Assembly: GCF_026125785.1 (NCBI RefSeq) | Contig: NZ_JAHCKL010000002.1 | Location: 124,001 to 188,000 of the forward strand | Length of the DNA: 64,000 bases | Direction of reading: 5' to 3' | Source: Hydrogenophaga sp. | GTDB taxonomy: Bacteria; Pseudomonadota; Gammaproteobacteria; Burkholderiales; Burkholderiaceae_C | In this document: positions 10,787 to 18,317 of the stretch, piece by piece | Layout of the letters: each line of letters starts with the position of its first letter | How positions within the stretch are numbered: position 1 is the stretch's first letter | Program-made: the position numbers and the translations under genes | The notes under the pieces: model-generated | The model's input: only the letters and a program-made list of their open reading frames with translations | Database searches by the model: none | What the model was told of the DNA's origin: nothing

Positions 10787-11032
10787 GGTGGTGATCTCCT
10801 TCATCATCTGACACGGGCCGGTGACCGTTCGGCGACATGCCGAACGACCGGGGAAAGTGCATTGTAGGGTGTCGGGTCTCCGAGGCGACAGTCGGTGCGT
10901 TGGCGCTTTTTTGGTATGGTCAGTTGTGACCGCATGGCAGCCAATCGGCGCGTTATCGTTCGCACTGCATACCCTGGATGACCCGGATCCCGTATTGCAG
11001 TTCCTTCTGACCTCTCAAATAGGACCAAGTTC

Positions 11033-11440
11033 ATGAAAAACAAGCCCGTTCTCGAGTCGGCCGATGTCAAGCTCATTGCCGCTGCCGCCGAGGCCGAAGC
11101 CCTGAAGAACCAATGGGCCGTCACCATCGCCATCGCCGACGATGGGGGGCACCTGCTCTGGTTGCAGCGCCTGGATGGCGTCGCCCCGATCTCCGCGCAC
11201 ATTGCACCGGCCAAGGCCATCACCGCCGCGTTGGGTCGCCGCGAGAGCAAGATCTACGAGGACATGATCAACCAAGGCCGGGTGTCGTTCCTGAGCGCGC
11301 CGCTGCTGGAGGGCATGCTGGAAGGCGGCGTGCCCATCGTCAAGGACGGTCAGTGCGTGGGTGCGATCGGTGTGAGCGGCGTGAAGTCCAGTGAGGACGC
11401 TCAGATCGCGCGGGCAGGGCTGGCGGCCATCGGCCTGTGA
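11033..11440 (+). CDS. GlcG/HbpS-type (DUF336) protein, possible heme binding
   Basis: This 135-residue protein is a small alpha/beta protein of the GlcG/HbpS/DUF336 family (segments VTIAIADDGGHLLWLQRLDG and GGVPIVKDGQCVGAIGVSG). Some members bind heme or corrinoids, while others sit in glycolate or diol catabolic operons with unclear function. It stands alone here, converging on the hemP end of the iron operon across the structured intergenic element at 11453-11676. A heme link is suggestive from this neighbour but unproven. Confidence 0.82.
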   Translation: MKNKPVLESADVKLIAAAAEAEALKNQWAVTIAIADDGGHLLWLQRLDGVAPISAHIAPAKAITAALGRRESKIYEDMINQGRVSFLSAPLLEGMLEGGVPIVKDGQCVGAIGVSGVKSSEDAQIARAGLAAIGL

Positions 11441-11452
11441 GCCTGCGTGTGG

Positions 11453-11555
11453 TAAAAAGCGGCCTGGCTACCGAAGCGTAAACCGCTTCCTGGCTGGCTG
11501 AAAACGACGCTCGGGGAAAGTGAAAAACCCCGGGTCGCCCCACGATGAAAATGAC
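11453..11555. repeat. Structured intergenic element, copy 1 (two hairpins)
   Basis: This is the first of two related units with a 125-base period. Hairpin 1 is GAAGCG/CGCTTC around a 5-base loop (about 11473-11489). Hairpin 2 is CTCGGGG/CCCCGGG around the loop AAAGTGAAAAA, and an outer CGA/TCG pairing can extend it. The conserved 3' end is CGCCCCACGATGA. Compared with copy 2, the stems differ in sequence but keep pairing. It lies in the 3' flank of both the GlcG-type gene and the tonB-exbBD-hemP operon, so the acting strand is not known. Candidates are a small RNA, a 3'UTR stability element or a REP-like repeat. Confidence 0.7.
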
Positions 11556-11577
11556 ATGCCTGTCTGTCTGGGCGGGC

Positions 11578-11676
11578 TGAAAAAATGCCTGGCTACTGAG
11601 ATACGGATCTCTTGGCTGGCTAAAAACGACGCCTGGGGAAAGTGAGATCCCCAGGGTCGCCCCACGATGAGATGAC
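11578..11676. repeat. Structured intergenic element, copy 2 (two hairpins)
   Basis: This is the second unit, sharing GCCTGGCTAC, TGGCTGGCT, AAAACGACGC, GGGGAAAGTGA and GGGTCGCCCCACGATGA with copy 1. Hairpin 1 is GAGAT/ATCTC around ACGG, entirely different in stem sequence from copy 1. Hairpin 2 is CCTGGGG/CCCCAGG around AAAGTGAGAT, extended by CGAC/GTCG with one bulged G. Pair changes relative to copy 1 are C-G to T-A and T-G to C-G. Both copies are preceded by a short A tract, which reads as a T tract on the minus strand. Confidence 0.7.
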
Positions 11677-11692
11677 GAGGCTGCGCTTCGGG

Positions 11693-11899
11693 CTATTTGG
11701 TGAGGATCAACTTGCCCTGGCGAGTGGCCTGCAGGCGGTAGAGCAGGCCGTTGTGGTCAATGGCCACCGATTTCTGGCCGCGCAGCAGCGTCGCACTGGC
11801 CAACACGGGCGTGTCGGCGGTGGCGCTCGTTGCTGGCGTGGCCGTTGTGTCCTGCGACGGGCGCTCGGACTGCGGGGGAATCGGTGGTGTCTGGTTCAT
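11693..11899 (-). CDS. hemP: Hemin uptake protein HemP
   Basis: This 68-residue protein has an unstructured Thr/Pro/Ser-rich N-terminus and the HemP signature at the C-terminus (LLRGQKSVAIDHNG, YRLQATRQGKLILTK). HemP/HmuP is a small protein required for hemin utilisation in several betaproteobacteria, where it acts on expression of heme receptor genes. Its ATG overlaps the stop of exbD (ATGA), placing it last in the tonB-exbB-exbD-hemP operon. No heme receptor gene lies in this window. Confidence 0.92.
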   Translation of the reverse strand: MNQTPPIPPQSERPSQDTTATPATSATADTPVLASATLLRGQKSVAIDHNGLLYRLQATRQGKLILTK

Positions 11900-12309
11900 G
11901 GTGCTACCGGTTCGGTGATGAAGCCGATCTTGCGCACGCCGGCGCGCTGTGCGGCCGCCATGGCGAGGGCCACGCGCTCATAGCGCACGGCTTTGTCGCC
12001 ACGGATGTGCAGTTCAGGTTGCGGGTCCTGCGCGGCGGCGGCTTGCAACCGGTTGGCGTACTCGGTGTCCTCCACGCGCTGGTCGTTCCAGAAATAGTGG
12101 CCTTCCGCATCGACGGCCAGCCGGATGTTTTCCGGTTTGTCCTGCACCTTCTCCACACTGGCCTGAGGGAGCTCGATGTTGACGGCGTGCTTGATGACGG
12201 GCACGGTGATGATGAAGATGATCAACAGCACGAGCATCACGTCGATGAACGGGATCATGTTGATCTCGCTCATCATCTCGTCGCTGTCCTGGGCGGTTCC
12301 GATGGCCAT
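11896..12309 (-). CDS. exbD: Biopolymer transport protein ExbD
   Basis: ExbD is the 137-residue inner-membrane partner of ExbB and TonB, converting the proton gradient into energy for outer-membrane receptors. A single N-terminal membrane segment carries the essential Asp, D23 in PFIDVMLVLL. A periplasmic domain of about 90 residues follows. A Shine-Dalgarno-like GGACAA lies before ATG 12309. It is between exbB and hemP in the same operon, and Fur regulation is likely through the site at 13978. Confidence 0.95.
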   Translation of the reverse strand: MAIGTAQDSDEMMSEINMIPFIDVMLVLLIIFIITVPVIKHAVNIELPQASVEKVQDKPENIRLAVDAEGHYFWNDQRVEDTEYANRLQAAAAQDPQPELHIRGDKAVRYERVALAMAAAQRAGVRKIGFITEPVAP

Positions 12310-12323
12310 GGTGGGTTGTCCTG

Positions 12324-13070
12324 TCAGGCTTTCTTCATGGAGAGAACCTTGCCCTCGCCGGTGGTTGTGACGCGGGCTCCGGTCACAAAGTAGGCGTGCA
12401 GGTCGTGCGCGAACCGGTTGAGCTGGTGCAGGACGCCTTTGTTGCCACGGACCAGGGCGTTGTAGCCCAGCACGGCGGGAATGGCGACGAGCAGGCCCAG
12501 CGCGGTCATGATCAGGGCTTCGCCGATGGGGCCGGCCACCTGGTCAATGCTGACCTGACCGGCGGCCCCGATGCCCAGCAGCGCGTGGTAGATGCCCCAG
12601 ACGGTGCCGAACAGGCCGACGAAAGGAGCGGTGGACGCCACCGACGCCAGCACGGAGAGGCCGCTCTGCGCGCGTGCGGTGAAGTCGTCGACGCTCTTGC
12701 GCAAGGCGCGCTCCACCCAGTCGCTGACATCCAGGCTGTCGTGCAACTGCCGCTGCGGCGGCGTGCCGGCGTGGGTGTCCTTGTGCAGGATGTGGCGGGT
12801 CGATTCACGGCCTTCCAGCGCGAGCGAGCGGAAGGGGTTGCCTTCGGCGGCGCCAAGCTTGTCCAGGCCTTCGGCGAAATCGGCGCTGTGCCAGAAGCCT
12901 TCGACGCCTTTGGCCTGGGCGCGCTGCGCGCGCTGGTCCAGAGCCTTCCACAGGATGATGACCCAGGTCGAGAGCGACATGATCAGCAGCACGATGGCGA
13001 CCGATCGGGTGACCCAGTCGCCTTGGGTCCAGACGTGGGCCAAGCCCGATGATGCGAGTTGCGGTTCCAT
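12324..13070 (-). CDS. exbB: MotA/TolQ/ExbB proton channel family protein ExbB
   Basis: This 248-residue ExbB has three predicted membrane segments. The first is near residues 18-38 (VAIVLLIMSLSTWVIILWKA). The others flank the conserved MotA/TolQ/ExbB region (STAPFVGLFGTVWGIYHAL, IGEALIMTALGLLVAIPAVL). It forms the proton-conducting channel with ExbD and powers TonB. The start at 13070 follows GGAGCAATC. TolQ is the main alternative, but the neighbours tonB and hemP favour ExbB. Confidence 0.94.
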   Translation of the reverse strand: MEPQLASSGLAHVWTQGDWVTRSVAIVLLIMSLSTWVIILWKALDQRAQRAQAKGVEGFWHSADFAEGLDKLGAAEGNPFRSLALEGRESTRHILHKDTHAGTPPQRQLHDSLDVSDWVERALRKSVDDFTARAQSGLSVLASVASTAPFVGLFGTVWGIYHALLGIGAAGQVSIDQVAGPIGEALIMTALGLLVAIPAVLGYNALVRGNKGVLHQLNRFAHDLHAYFVTGARVTTTGEGKVLSMKKA

Positions 13071-13109
13071 GGAAAGATTGCTCCGGATAGAAGAGGAAGA
13101 TCGGTGAAA

Positions 13110-13838
13110 TCAGGATGGCTTGATGTTGAAGCGGATGGGCACGGTGACCCACATGGCTTCCGGCACGCCGGCACGCTTGCCGGGCACGAAGCGCCAACGC
13201 ATCACGGTCTGCTGCGCCACCTCGTCTAGCCGCTCGTAGCCACTGGACTTGAGGATGTTGGCCTGGGAGGGTGAGCCATCGGCTTGCACGAAGACATTGA
13301 GGGTTACCGTGCCCTGTTCGCCCAGCCGCTTGGACAGCGGCGGGTAGGGAGGACTGGGGTTGCTGAGGTAGGCGGCATTGGTGGACGGCAACTCGATGCG
13401 CGGCGGGGCGGGCGGTGCCGGTGGAGCGGGCGGCGCCGCGGCCACGATGGGCTCCGGGGGCGCAGGTGGCGCCGGAGGGCTGGGTGGTACCACGGGGGCC
13501 AGCGGTGAAGGTTCGGGCGTGGGCGCGGCCACGGGCTGAGGTTGCGGAGGCGCGACCGGCTTGGGCCGCGGTTTGGGCGGCTCGGGCTTGGCCACGGGTG
13601 GCGCTGGCGGCACGGGCTCGACCTTGGGCTGCGGGGGCTCGATCAGCTCGGCCATCACCTGGACCGGAATCACCAGCTCGACCGCGCGACGGAGCAAGCC
13701 GGACTGCAGGGCCCAGAGCGCCAGGACGTGAAAGCCCACCACCGAGGCCACGATAGCGATGCGGCGGTTCACGCGAGGGGAGTCTGCGTGCTGCATGGGC
13801 GAGAGAGGCGGCGCAGCGCTGGCGCTGAGGGGGAGCAT
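13110..13838 (-). CDS. tonB: Energy transducer TonB
   Basis: This 242-residue TonB has a short cytoplasmic N-terminus and one membrane anchor (IAIVASVVGFHVLALWAL, with the conserved His). A long Pro/Ala/Glu/Lys-rich periplasmic spacer with PPAPPAPP repeats (about 60-155) follows, then the C-terminal TonB domain that contacts TonB boxes (YPPLSKRLGEQGTVTLNVFV; WRFVPGKRAG). ATG 13838 and ATG 13796 (MQHADSPRVN) are both possible starts, and neither has a clear ribosome site. It is followed by exbB, exbD and hemP and preceded by a tiny hydrophobic reading frame. Confidence 0.93.
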   Translation of the reverse strand: MLPLSASAAPPLSPMQHADSPRVNRRIAIVASVVGFHVLALWALQSGLLRRAVELVIPVQVMAELIEPPQPKVEPVPPAPPVAKPEPPKPRPKPVAPPQPQPVAAPTPEPSPLAPVVPPSPPAPPAPPEPIVAAAPPAPPAPPAPPRIELPSTNAAYLSNPSPPYPPLSKRLGEQGTVTLNVFVQADGSPSQANILKSSGYERLDEVAQQTVMRWRFVPGKRAGVPEAMWVTVPIRFNIKPS

Positions 13839-13859
13839 GAGTGTAGCGGTGGTGTTGTG

Positions 13860-13952
13860 TCAGGAACGCAGGACCCACCACAGCGCGACCAGCAGCAGCA
13901 TCAAACTGCTGCCCAGCATCAGGAGTCCTGTCATGGTCAGTGGTCCTTTCAT
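13860..13952 (-). CDS. Tiny hydrophobic membrane peptide upstream of tonB
   Basis: This short reading frame encodes 30 residues, or 24 if the second ATG at 13934 is used, nearly all of one membrane helix (TGLLMLGSSLMLLLVALWWV) ending in LRS. AAAGGA lies 9 bases before ATG 13934, a good Shine-Dalgarno position that favours the shorter form. It is the first reading frame after the Fur-like site and 21 bases upstream of tonB, so it would be co-transcribed with the uptake genes. I know no family for it. It could be a real small protein or a leader peptide coupling translation into tonB. Confidence 0.5.
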   Translation of the reverse strand: MKGPLTMTGLLMLGSSLMLLLVALWWVLRS

Positions 13953-13977
13953 GGTCGGGCGGTGGAGTTCTTATTCT

Positions 13978-13998
13978 AAACGAGAATTCTTCGCATTT
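13978..13998 (-). promoter_or_regulatory. Fur-box-like operator ahead of the tonB operon
   Basis: The + strand reads AAACGAGAATTCTTCGCATT plus one base. It matches the site ahead of the siderophore receptor (18205-18225) at 16 of 20 aligned positions, and both resemble betaproteobacterial Fur boxes with AATGCGAA and GAAT/TTCTCGTTT halves. It is about 25 bases upstream of the small reading frame and the tonB operon on the minus strand. Iron repression by Fur is inferred. Confidence 0.65.
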
Positions 13999-14046
13999 AC
14001 TTAATTGACGAAAGAATCGCGTGAAGTTTCTCTTCTGGCGCGGATT

Positions 14047-15171
14047 TCAATCTCTGGCGATCACGTTCGCGGCCTGGTCGAGCGTGCGGCAACCGGTCAG
14101 GGCCATGGCGATTTCCAGTTCGTCCCTCAGCAGACGCAGGACGTGGGCCACACCGGTGGCGCCGGCATTGGCCAGGCCATGCAGCACGGGCCTGCCCACC
14201 ATGACGGCCGAAGCGCCCAAAGCCATGGCCTTGAGCACGTCGGTGCCACGGCGGATGCCGCCATCGACGAGCACCGGCACCTCGCCTCGCGTGGCGCTCA
14301 CAACGGCCGGCAGAAGCCGGGCGGTGGCGGGCATGGTGTCCAGCGTGCGGCCGCCGTGGTTGGAGACGATCAGGCCTTGGGCTCCTGCATCGATGGCCTG
14401 CCGGGCGTCGTCCGGATGCACAAGGCCTTTGAGCAGCACGGGCAACCGGGTGATCGAGCGCAACCAGCCGATGTCATCCCAGGTTGGGGCGTGGCACATC
14501 AGGCCGTCGAACAGGGCGCTCTGACCCGCCTGCAGAGGTGGTCCGGCCGGCAGGGTCAGTCCGGCGAGATTGACGGCCGAGATGTCTGCCGGCAGGCTGA
14601 ACTGGGCGCGTCGCTCCTGGTCCCGGGCGCCTTGCACCGGCGCGTCAACGGTGAGGACCAGGGCCTCGAAGCCCGCGGTCTCGGCACGCTGGACCAGTTC
14701 ACGCACAAAGCCCCGGTCTGGCTGGAGGTAGAGCTGGAACCACAACGGTCCCCGTGAGGGTTCTGGCAGGTAGATCCTGGCCACGTCCTCCAGGCGTGTC
14801 GATGCCTGTGTGCTCAGCACCAGACCGGCGCCCAGGGCGGACGCCGCCAGGGCCGTTGCCTGCTCGCCATGGGGGTGCACGAGCCGCTGGTAGGCGGTGG
14901 GCGCAACCAGAATGGGGTGTGCCCATTCCCGGCCAAGCAATGGCACGCGCGTATGGCCACCGGCCAGCGGACGCAGCACGCGTGGAAGCAGCTCTATCTG
15001 CTGCCACGCGGTCTGATTGGCGCGCAGGGTGATTTCGTCGGCCGCTCCACCAAACAGGTAGGCACGCACCGCACGGTCCAATTGGCGCTCGGCGTGCCGT
15101 TCGTGGTCGGCGAGACTGACCAGGCCTTCAGGCAGCGTCGAGTACGCTGGTGGCGGGGAAGCCGGTTTCAT
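14047..15171 (-). CDS. FMN-dependent alpha-hydroxy-acid oxidase/dehydrogenase
   Basis: This 374-residue protein belongs to the family of lactate dehydrogenase LldD and glycolate oxidase, which oxidise 2-hydroxy acids with FMN. The catalytic His motif SNHGGRTLD and the FMN phosphate-binding stretch [20 protein letters not shown] are intact, as is the Lys of [14 protein letters not shown] 15171 overlaps the stop of piuC (ATGA). This is an unusual place for such an enzyme: last in an operon with a siderophore receptor and a PiuC hydroxylase. The substrate may be a siderophore-related hydroxy acid, or simply lactate; the sequence does not decide. Confidence 0.85.
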
Positions 15172-15882: not shown

Positions 15883-18123
15883 TCAGAACATTTTCTTGAG
15901 CGAAACCTGGATGCTGCGTGCGGCACCCGGTACGTAGAAGCCGCGGTACAGCGAGTCGGCGTACAGCTCGTTGGTCAGGTTGGTGACGTTGAGCTTGATG
16001 ACGGTGGAATCCGTCAGCGTGTACTCCGCCATCGCATCGACCGTGGTGAAGCTGTCTGCCGTGACATGGCGCGCACCTTCCGGATTCTGCTTGCCGCGGT
16101 AGTTCAGGCCGCCGCCAATGCGCAGTTTGGGCGTGACCAGGTAGGTCGTCCAGAGGCTGGCGCTGTGCTTGGGCGTGAGGCCTGGGCGGTCACCCTGCAC
16201 CTGCGCGCCGGTGCCTGCGTTGTTGAGCGCGACATTGCTCTTGTCGATCTTCGCGTTGGGGATCCAGGTGTGGTTGTAGAAGATCTCCCACTTCGGCGTG
16301 ATACGGCCGGCGAGGTTGAACTCCATGCCAGCGGCGTGGCGCTTGCCCGACAGCAACTGTTGCGTGGACGCGGTGTCCGGGTCGGTGTTGCGTTCGTTGT
16401 ACTTCTCCGAATAGAAGAACGCGGCACCCAGTGAGGCGCGCTTCTCGAACAGTTCGAACTTGCTGCCGATCTCCAGATTGCGGCTTTTCTCGGGCGGGGT
16501 GTTGGCGTCTTTGGTGTTCGGTGCGCCTGGGGTGAACTGGTAGGTGTCGCCCGAGGTATTGAACGAGGTGCCGTAGGAGATGTAGTAGGAGGTGTTCTCG
16601 TCCGGTTGGAAGAGCGCACCCACGCGCGGGCTCCAGAGGCTGGCCGAGACGCTGTTGGCCACGCCCGCGTTGGTCACGTACGACGCCTTGAAGTTGTCGT
16701 GGCGCAGGCCGCCGATGAGCTTGAACTCGGACGTCAGCGACACGGTGTCCTGGATGTACAGACCCAGGTTGCGCGCATCAAAGGTGTTGAAAGGCGGTGC
16801 GCCACGCGTATCGGCGCGCGAGTCACCGTCGTTGGGCGTGCCGACCAGGGTGGTGAGGCCGCTGTTGCCTCCGGGGAAGTTGTTGGCCCGCTTGGCGTCT
16901 TCCTGGTAGATGTCCACCCCCGCGATCAGGTCGTGCTTCTTGCCCAGCGCCTCGAAGCTGTTGACGTAGTCGCTTTGGATCTGCGTGGTGTCGCTGATGC
17001 CGACGCGACCTTTGGCGGTGCGGCCCAGGACGGTGTTGGGGCCGAGTGTGTTGATGGACGCGGCGACGCCGCCGGGTTGCTCCGCCGCCGGGCGGAAACC
17101 GATCACGCTGGCCCAGAGGTCGCGCTCATAGCGACCATGGCGCACCCGGGTGGTCAGGGAGCTCTGGCGGTCGAAACGGTAGGTGTGGCTGAAGGTGGCG
17201 TAGTCGGCCGAGGTATCCAGGTGGTCGCTGGCCAGACCGTAGTAGTTGCGCGCAGGCAGCGTCGGCACGATGACGCCGTTGCTTAGGAACCAGGGGTGGT
17301 TGTAGGTCGGCTTGCTCTCGGATTCGAGGTGGTAGAAGCCGATCGAGAACTCGTTGCGCGTGCCGATGCCCCAGCGGTAGGTGGGGGCGATGCCGCGCTT
17401 GTTCAGCTTGGCGCCGTAGTTGTCGGCGGTGTGCACCATCGCGTTGAGGCGGAAAGCCGAGTCTTCGCTCAGCATGAAGTTGAAGTCGCCGGTCAGGCGG
17501 TGCTCCTTGCCCGTGCCAAAGGTGTAGTCGACCTCGTGCTGGTCCAGCAGGTACGGCTGCTTGCTCACCTGGTTGACCACACCGCCGGTGGATCCCTTGC
17601 CGAACAACATCGAGGCCGAGCCCTTGAGCACCTCGACACGGTCGTTGTTGAACGTGTCGCGTTCGTAGAGCGCGCCGTCGCGGATGCCGTCGGTGTAGAT
17701 GTCGCCCGACTGCTGGAGGGAGAAGCCGCGCAGGCGCACGTCTTCTTCACCGGTCTCGCCGGCCTGGAAGGTCACGCCAGCGGTGGTGCGAAGCACCTCG
17801 CGGAAGTCATCGAGGTTGCGGTCGTCCAGCAGGCGCTCGGTCATCACCGTCACGGACTGCGGAATGTCGCGCAGTGCCTGCGTGCCTTTGCCGATGCGGG
17901 TATTGGTCGTGCGCAGCTCGTTCTTGGTCTGGGGCACCTCGGCCGACTCGGTCACTTCCACTGTTGGCAGTGTCACCGTGGCGGTCGTGGGGGCCGTCTG
18001 TGCCATGGCGCCGACCGAACCGGCGAGCAGCATCGCGCCCAAGGGAAGCAGGGTGGCCTGGGAGGCCGGTTGAAGAGGGGAAGAGGTGCGCGCGGGGCGC
18101 TGACGGTGTTTCCGCTGGGACAT
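15883..18123 (-). CDS. TonB-dependent siderophore receptor (Fiu/PiuA type)
   Basis: This outer-membrane receptor of about 746 residues imports ferric siderophores using TonB-ExbBD energy. A signal peptide ends near AMAQ (residue 42). A TonB-box-like LPTVEVTE, a plug domain ([46 protein letters not shown]) and a 22-strand barrel ending in the typical aromatic F follow. The neighbours piuC and the plug sequence suggest a catecholate receptor related to Fiu/PiuA. ATG 18123 gives a plausible signal peptide; ATG 18177 would add 18 residues and lies closer to the Fur-like site, so the start is uncertain. Confidence 0.92.
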
Positions 18124-18204
18124 GGTTGCAACGAGGGGAGGGCGGTTTTCGGCTGGCTGCAACGCGTCGCGCGTCATGGCTGGCTGGAGCTCTTGATCAT
18201 AAAT

Positions 18205-18225
18205 CAAACAAGAACAATTCGCATT
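18205..18225 (-). promoter_or_regulatory. Fur-box-like operator ahead of the siderophore receptor
   Basis: On the minus strand the site reads AATGCGAATTGTTCTTGTTT, a close match to Fur boxes known in betaproteobacteria. It lies 28 bases before ATG 18177 and about 80 bases before ATG 18123, where it would cover the promoter. It shares the consensus AAACRAGAAYNNTTCGCATT (+ strand) with the site at 13978-13998. Fur binding is inferred. Confidence 0.7.
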
Positions 18226-18317
18226 AATATGTAAAAACTCATAGCAAAAGACATGCAACTGCTGTGGCGCGAGAGACTCAGTCTCAATGCTGCGGAGCAA
18301 CAAAATCTATGACATCC

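What the first reader, a model, noticed from the sequence alone, without database searches (positions are those of the whole stretch)
11453..11676. Twin 100-base intergenic element with covarying hairpins
Two related units 125 bases apart share loops and joining segments (GCCTGGCTAC, AAAACGACGC, GGGGAAAGTGA, GGGTCGCCCCACGATGA) but have different stems that still pair. Hairpin 1 is GAAGCG/CGCTTC in one copy and GAGAT/ATCTC in the other. Hairpin 2 is CTCGGGG/CCCCGGG versus CCTGGGG/CCCCAGG. Coordinated changes on both arms mean the structure, not the sequence, is kept. The unit lies in the 3' flank of the iron operon and of a GlcG/HbpS-type gene. No T tract follows on the + strand, so it is not a simple terminator. 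It may be a small RNA family, a paired-domain sensor or a lineage-specific repeat. A weaker match to AACGAC plus GGGGAAAGTG occurs at 10843-10859 without the pairing arm.
Basis: partly seen in the sequence, partly recalled or inferred. Interest (0 to 1): 0.8.

Follow-up and report, generated by a model that had tools for sequence, protein, structure and literature searches.

The report
Twin iron-starvation small RNA genes
The paired element is probably two back-to-back copies of a small regulatory RNA read from the opposite strand, just after the haem-uptake gene hemP; its anatomy and relatives suggest that it saves iron by switching off iron-using enzymes, and its family turns up in many relatives such as Acidovorax, Variovorax and Comamonas.

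Summary
The twin units are real, their stems covary, and they belong to a conserved RNA family, but the RNA lies on the MINUS strand. Each unit reads 5'-UUUCAUCGUGGGG, hairpin 1, U tract, GCCAGCCA, hairpin 2, UAGCCAGGC, U tract, behind hemP of a tonB-exbB-exbD-hemP operon. A covariance model finds it in 78 of 299 genomes of the family (39 of 141 genera); in 300 genomes of the order, matches outside the family are weak. Of 102 copies, 80 follow hemP; 22 stand alone behind Fur-box-like sites, 13 of these with a good -10 box. This fits a Fur-controlled iron-sparing sRNA, a counterpart of Burkholderia BrrF/BTH_s39 (also in the hemP 3' end, also with a 5' GUGGGG, which BrrF needs for most tested targets). 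Rfam's BTH_s39 model does not detect it, so it is not filed as a member. Its 5' end fits the start codons of fumA (12 of 15 genomes) and sdhC (8 of 15) better than most genes; sodB and acnA give no support. Tandem copies arose more than once. No transcript data were available; my searches found no description in print.

The parts
11580..11672 (-). sRNA copy A (first after hemP), 93 nt, T6 at its 3' end
   Evidence: R1 83.6 bits, E 2.6e-21 in own genome
11454..11550 (-). sRNA copy B (second of the tandem pair), 97 nt, T5 at its 3' end
   Evidence: R1 70.4 bits at 11455-11550, E 2.9e-17; sequence
11660..11672 (-). 5' segment (putative seed) of copy A, UCUCAUCGUGGGG
   Evidence: CATCGTGGGG identical in 91 of 102 copies
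11538..11550 (-). 5' segment (putative seed) of copy B, UUUCAUCGUGGGG
   Evidence: as above
11627..11659 (-). hairpin 1 of copy A (CGAC...GUCG with variable inner stem), followed by a U tract
   Evidence: fold; covariation
11505..11537 (-). hairpin 1 of copy B
11580..11620 (-). GCCAGCCA - hairpin 2 - UAGCCAGGC - T tract of copy A (putative terminator)
   Evidence: the simple terminator scan did not report it
11454..11498 (-). the same region of copy B; competing folds
   Evidence: not reported by the terminator scan
11693..11899 (-). hemP, 20 nt upstream of copy A
   Evidence: Pfam PF10636 E 2.1e-16; distance
11896..12309 (-). exbD
   Evidence: Pfam PF02472
12324..13070 (-). exbB
   Evidence: Pfam PF01618
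13110..13838 (-). tonB
   Evidence: Pfam PF03544
13982..14000 (-). Fur-box-like site upstream of the operon, 12 of 19 consensus matches
   Evidence: not significant alone: 12 sites of the window score 12 or 13
11033..11440 (+). HbpS-like (GlcG/HbpS) gene, convergent neighbour, not part of the RNA
   Evidence: Pfam PF03928

Best explanation
The twin units are two tandem genes of a trans-acting small regulatory RNA of 93 and 97 nt on the minus strand. Shown: conserved covarying structure, constant 5' segment, T tract at the 3' end, position behind hemP, and stand-alone relatives with Fur-box-like sites and -10 boxes. Inferred: when iron is scarce, Fur releases the tonB-exbB-exbD-hemP operon (or, in stand-alone copies, the RNA's own promoter). 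The RNA is cut from the hemP 3' end near UUUCAUCG and ends at its own terminator. Its 5' segment UCAUCGUGGGG pairs with C-rich translation starts such as CCCCACC-AUGA of fumA and sdhC, covers the start codon and lowers translation of iron-using enzymes; Hfq help is likely but untested. The second copy would raise dose or give a redundant regulator (same seed, different stems), as PrrF1/PrrF2 do in Pseudomonas (recalled). Step by step: minus-strand sRNA about 0.85, iron-sparing role about 0.7, start-codon masking about 0.4.
For: Gene and strand: 101 of 102 copies have a T run of 5 or more at the 3' end and 91 of 102 share CATCGTGGGG; of 91 named hemP-linked copies 73 start 0-29 nt after the hemP stop. 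Structure under selection. Breadth: 78 of 299 family genomes, 48 of 60 of the genus. Iron link: 80 of 102 copies lie behind hemP; the 22 stand-alone copies score higher for a Fur consensus at -105..-35 than linked ones (p 1e-12; 12 of 22 reach 13 or more of 19 against 1.2% of mononucleotide-shuffled regions); -10 hexamer of 5/6 or better in 13 of 22 against 0 of 80. Named set (partly the same species): 125 copies, 91 linked by script, 34 not, p 1e-15. Analogy: BrrF is cut from hemP mRNA, rises more than 50-fold in low iron, and changing its 5' G residues at positions 8 and 9 abolished or reduced its effect on the tested genes other than sdhA and sdhC (PMC7377471; abstract, passages, sections 6 and 15). 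Targets: start-codon pairing is within the strongest 5% of 210 background starts for fumA in 12 of 15 genomes (window's own genome: 3.3%) and sdhC in 8 of 15 (own: 0.5%), against sodB 2 of 12, acnA 1 of 9, leuC 2 of 10, sodA 0 of 8; with a first-ATG background 12, 8, 1, 1, 2, 0.
Against: No transcript was seen. BrrF's effect on sdhC did not depend on its 5' end, and that paper places only 17% of its predicted sites at the first 10 nt before the start and favours mRNA decay, so start-codon masking is not what is known of BrrF. sodB and acnA show no pairing beyond background. Over a wider region (-40..+30) own sdhC ranks at 2% but fumA 19%, leuC 14%, acnA 44%, sodB 70%; duplex z-scores over -90..+50 are weak. 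Against any ATGA in 464 kb, fumA keeps 6 of 15 and sdhC 0 of 15. Copies and genomes are related, so p-values overstate independence. The window's Fur-like site is not significant alone; no sigma-70-like promoter in 11400-14100, and the terminator scan did not report hairpin 2 of either copy. Single-sequence fold z-scores are modest, -1.3 to -3.2 in 8 sequences, copy B -1.5. Hfq binding was not tested.
Confidence: 0.75

Rival explanations
1. The unit is only the transcription terminator and 3' stabiliser of the hemP operon; the twin is a double terminator with no action in trans.
For: Position right behind hemP and a T tract at the end; tandem terminators occur (recalled).
Against: A terminator does not need CATCGTGGGG, identical in 91 of 102 copies; 22 of 102 copies stand behind Fur-box-like sites without hemP.
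Confidence: 0.12
2. A cis-acting element or riboswitch-like sensor of paired domains in the hemP 3' region.
For: Twin arrangement and two conserved hairpins.
Against: 56 of 78 genomes have one unit; in the ten stand-alone copies looked at, downstream genes differ; no Rfam riboswitch match in the window.
Confidence: 0.05
3. An RNA on the + strand in the 3' end of the HbpS-like gene, or a bidirectional terminator.
For: The + strand folds slightly better (z -2.2 and -4.6 against -1.5 and -4.1); the HbpS-like gene ends just before it.
Against: On the + strand the conserved run is A, not T, and precedes the structure; hemP, Fur-like sites and -10 boxes lie on the other side.
Confidence: 0.04
4. A dispersed repeat of REP or MITE type spreading in Comamonadaceae.
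For: 22 of 78 genomes with a match have two or three copies.
Against: At most 3 matches per genome, constant neighbourhood and orientation, constant 5' segment.
Confidence: 0.02

Closest known systems
BrrF / ncS63 / BTH_s39 (Rfam RF02692), Burkholderia hemP 3'-end iron sRNA
   Same: Same place behind hemP; GUGGGG near the 5' end just before a hairpin; then AGCCAGC, a second hairpin, AGCCA(A/G)GC and a U tract, seen by eye in Burkholderia-type loci L341-L344 (AGCCAGC in L341-L343). RF02692 finds L341-L343 at gathering and L344 at 45.9 bits against a cut-off of 77. Published BTH_s39 primer and probe hold GTATTGTGGGG and TAGCCAGCCA (PMC4035088, passages).
   Different: RF02692 does not report the window units at E<=10 nor 7 of 7 own-family loci tried; R1 does not find the Burkholderia type (E 0.57 or worse). 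BrrF is 126 nt, always behind hemP, without a Fur box of its own and not reaching the terminator stem (PMC7377471); here copies are 73-110 nt, some stand alone and some are tandem.
RyhB and PrrF1/PrrF2
   Same: Proposed iron-sparing role; stand-alone copies directly behind Fur-box-like sites; tandem copies as for PrrF (recalled).
   Different: No Rfam family matched the window at gathering or convincingly at E<=10; most copies follow hemP.
HrrF (Haemophilus) and NrrF (Neisseria)
   Same: Fur-regulated sRNA idea (HrrF seen in a search listing only; NrrF recalled).
   Different: No Rfam match.

Membership tests
BrrF / BTH_s39 (RF02692) | Reaches the family's covariance model cut-off (77 bits) | tested here: not met
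   Absent at gathering for the window and at E<=10 for 11400-11720; absent at E<=10 for L038, L040, L023, L013, L120, L009, L271, while Burkholderia-type L341-L343 pass
BrrF / BTH_s39 (RF02692) | Located in the 3' end of hemP | tested here: met
   Copy A is 20 nt behind hemP
BrrF / BTH_s39 (RF02692) | 5' GUGGGG before hairpin 1, then AGCCAGC and a second hairpin | tested here: met
   By eye, A2 against L341-L343; significance not computed
BrrF / BTH_s39 (RF02692) | Iron-repressed, cut from hemP mRNA, acts on acnA, fumA, sdhC, sodB, katB | not testable with these tools
   No expression data; only start-region pairing tested
RyhB / PrrF / other Rfam sRNAs | Rfam model match | tested here: not met
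Fur-controlled iron-sparing sRNA (functional class) | Fur-controlled promoter | tested here: inconclusive
   Strong for 22 stand-alone copies; the window's site has 12 of 19 matches only
Fur-controlled iron-sparing sRNA (functional class) | Base pairing to mRNAs of iron-using enzymes | tested here: inconclusive
   fumA 12 of 15, sdhC 8 of 15 supportive; sodB 2 of 12, acnA 1 of 9 not; weaker against any ATGA
Hfq-dependent sRNA | Binds Hfq; terminator with U tail | tested here: inconclusive
   U tail met; binding not testable

The most novel reading that the evidence does not exclude
The hemP 3' end of Burkholderiales carries an old, order-wide sRNA core (paired AGCCAGC motifs around a hairpin), to which Comamonadaceae and Burkholderia both add a GUGGGG seed hairpin. 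In Comamonadaceae the RNA has escaped to autonomous Fur-controlled genes and been duplicated in tandem more than once, and its seed (anti-start UCAU plus GUGGGG) masks the start codons of fumA and sdhC directly.
Probability: 0.33. Interest if true: 0.75.

Novelty: new variant of a known kind. Interest (0 to 1): 0.6.

Why it matters
It would give a large group of environmental bacteria a RyhB/PrrF counterpart, show a 3'-UTR-derived sRNA and its promoter-driven, independent form side by side in one family, and offer a seed with a defined, testable start-codon target. It also suggests that BrrF, which its authors found in Burkholderia, Paraburkholderia, Pandoraea and in part Cupriavidus (PMC7377471), belongs to a wider hemP-linked group.

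Tried and rejected
Rfam for the region: nothing at gathering, four chance-like matches at E<=10. The extra match at 10843-10859: chance. Viral contigs pattern: 0 hits. Order-wide R1: 8 genomes outside the family match weakly (best 26.3 bits, E 3.4e-4, L274); L274 was read and shows no GTGGGG seed; the other 7 were not inspected. L122 (22.7 bits) was dropped as a likely false match before the counts with n=102 (103 matches). Duplex energies over -90..+50: weak for every gene; middle and terminal segments of the RNA: no enrichment. Seed permutations keeping UUUCAU: only 42 distinct ones exist; at least as selective in fumA 0, sdhC 29, acnA 42, sodB 66, leuC 259, sodA 264 of 400 draws. Shuffling the 14 nt before the start: mean fraction as strong fumA 0.17, sdhC 0.22, sodB 0.33, leuC 0.42, acnA 0.43, sodA 0.71. 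The SD-chosen background may be biased against C-rich starts, so first-ATG and any-ATGA backgrounds were added; the latter weakens the claim. Rows used: SOD 20 of 22 matches (12 sodB, 8 sodA; two of G122 unusable); sdhC 15 of 31 Sdh_cyt matches (the others are mostly sdhD and one second copy); fumA 15 of 16; of the aconitase matches 9 acnA and 10 leuC. Gene starts were picked by homology and hand.

Full report
What is there. The two units at 11453-11676 are real and their stems differ while still pairing. The window is G000:C12:124001-188000. Its genus is very probably Hydrogenophaga: a same-genus genome (G208) has a contig of the same length, 694182, as H. taeniospiralis NZ_BCWR01000001. Between an HbpS-like gene on the + strand (11033-11440) and the end of a tonB-exbB-exbD-hemP operon on the minus strand (13838-11693) lie two oriented copies of one RNA. 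Read on the minus strand, copy A (11672-11580) starts 20 nt after hemP; copy B (11550-11454) follows 29 nt later.

Breadth. A DNA query matched 49 of 299 genomes of the family; the 29 relatives' loci returned with it (best matches) all have the same architecture on the RNA strand. They and the two window copies gave alignment A2 (31 rows) and model R1. R1 matches 78 of 299 genomes of the family, 39 of 141 genera, 103 matches in all; 22 of the 78 have two or three. It matches 48 of 60 genomes of the genus and only the two units in the own genome. In 300 genomes of the order 14 match, 6 of them own-family with strong scores and 8 others weakly. The counts are lower bounds: the genome searches use strict filters, and a divergent own-family copy (L271, 30.6 bits) belongs to a genome without a match. 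Titles name Variovorax, Acidovorax, Paracidovorax, Comamonas, Delftia, Hydrogenophaga, Ramlibacter, Curvibacter, Xylophilus, Lampropedia, Vandammella and others, MAGs and one isolate with higher-rank names, and two 'Pantoea sp. 18069' contigs (that the genera are Comamonadaceae is recalled).

Structure and selection. The RNA reads UUUCAUCGUGGGG; hairpin 1 with a CGAC/GUCG base and a variable inner stem; U tract; GCYAGCCA; hairpin 2 with a variable stem; UAGCCARGC; U tract. Pair counts on the unfitted alignment exceed shuffles and slid controls. Arms match their own partner: native stronger than the mean of swaps in 81 of 83 (hairpin 1) and 63 of 77 (hairpin 2) distinct sequences (16 of 103 not parsed). 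Single-sequence fold energies alone are only modestly below shuffles (z -1.3 to -3.2 in 8 sequences). CATCGTGGGG is identical in 91 of 102 copies; in most folds shown it is unpaired or in weak G-U pairs.

Gene form. Of 102 copies (one weak match dropped) 80 follow hemP (77 by script, 3 by eye) and 22 do not. The 22 have Fur-like sites 57-89 nt upstream with 10-15 of 19 matches; linked copies have 7-11 in the same interval (p 1e-12); 12 of 22 reach 13 or more, against 1.2% of mononucleotide shuffles. A -10 hexamer of at least 5 of 6 is present in 13 of 22 against 0 of 80. The named set repeats this: 125 copies, 91 linked by script and 34 not, one of which (L157) is linked by eye; p 1e-15. Neighbours of some stand-alone copies: a Fur-family-like regulator (L030, L081) and a DUF2325-like gene (L112), named from translations without a profile; a Sod_Fe_C gene lies about 1 to 1.5 kb downstream in G136 and G283. 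Copy A is 73% identical to copy B but 85% to the single copy of another genome of the genus (L284), whereas the G625 twins are 84% identical to each other: tandem duplication seems to have happened more than once.

Link to BrrF. Burkholderia cenocepacia BrrF is cut from hemP mRNA, rises more than 50-fold in low iron, and acnA, fumA, sdhA, sdhC, sodB and katB fall in low iron only when it is present; changing the G residues at positions 8 and 9 abolished or reduced its effect on the tested genes except sdhC and sdhA (PMC7377471; abstract, passages, sections 6 and 15 read). Burkholderia-type loci L341-L343 match RF02692 BTH_s39 at gathering and L344 at 45.9 bits. They share with the window RNA the place, GUGGGG before hairpin 1, AGCCAGC (L341-L343), a second hairpin and AGCCA(A/G)GC or a close form with a U tract. 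But the models do not recognise each other's RNA. I therefore call it a counterpart, not a member. Downstream of hemP in other families of the order AGCCAGC occurs 39 times in sense and once in antisense orientation, in 18 of 25 parsed loci (of 29): a wider core is possible.

Targets. Testing genes named beforehand by the BrrF work, the 5' segment pairs at the start codon of class I fumA within the strongest 5% of 210 background starts in 12 of 15 genomes and of sdhC in 8 of 15; sodB (2 of 12), acnA (1 of 9) and the controls leuC (2 of 10) and sodA (0 of 8) do not stand out. Starts such as CCCCACC-AUGA fit GUGGGG and UCAU with one C.C mismatch (sequences). The order of bases before the start matters beyond composition for fumA and sdhC, but against all ATGA sites the effect is weak for fumA (6 of 15) and absent for sdhC, and over wider regions it is weak. 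In Burkholderia the effect on sdhC did not depend on the 5' end. The target step is inferred, not shown.

Literature. My searches (open-licence PMC papers only) found no description of this RNA in Comamonadaceae. The word start 'comamon' does not occur in the main texts of the BrrF and BTH_s39 papers or of a review of Burkholderia cepacia complex sRNAs, and hemP, Variovorax, Acidovorax, Comamonas and Delftia do not occur in two structured-RNA surveys. I saw these papers by word search and passages only, apart from the sections named above.

Noticed in passing
L312-L340 and L341-L360, 250 nt downstream of hemP: AGCCAGC is strongly oriented downstream of hemP across Burkholderiales families (39 sense and 1 antisense in 25 parsed loci; 14 and 0 in 19 more), often as two GCCAGC motifs 10-50 nt apart.
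   Followed up: partly
L112 (G136:C60) and L119 (G283:C1): Divergent stand-alone copies lie about 1 to 1.5 kb upstream of a Sod_Fe_C gene of SodA type, with a DUF2325-like gene between (the latter name without a profile).
   Followed up: partly
L030, L081: Stand-alone copies sit just upstream of what reads as a Fur-family regulator; not confirmed by a profile.
   Followed up: no
window 11632-11655 minus: The stem of hairpin 1 with its T tract looks like a terminator itself (2 such sites found, 2.0 expected by chance), so a shorter RNA of about 50 nt is conceivable.
   Followed up: no
L196, L224 (NZ_CACSJA010000012.1, NZ_CACSJA010000062.1): Contigs titled Pantoea sp. 18069 carry this RNA, suggesting a wrong label or contamination.
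   Followed up: no
L271 (G210:C14): A divergent member (30.6 bits) with hemP upstream, in a genome not among the matches.
   Followed up: partly
window 15883-18303 minus: A TonB-dependent receptor gene lies upstream of the tonB operon, widening the iron context.
   Followed up: no
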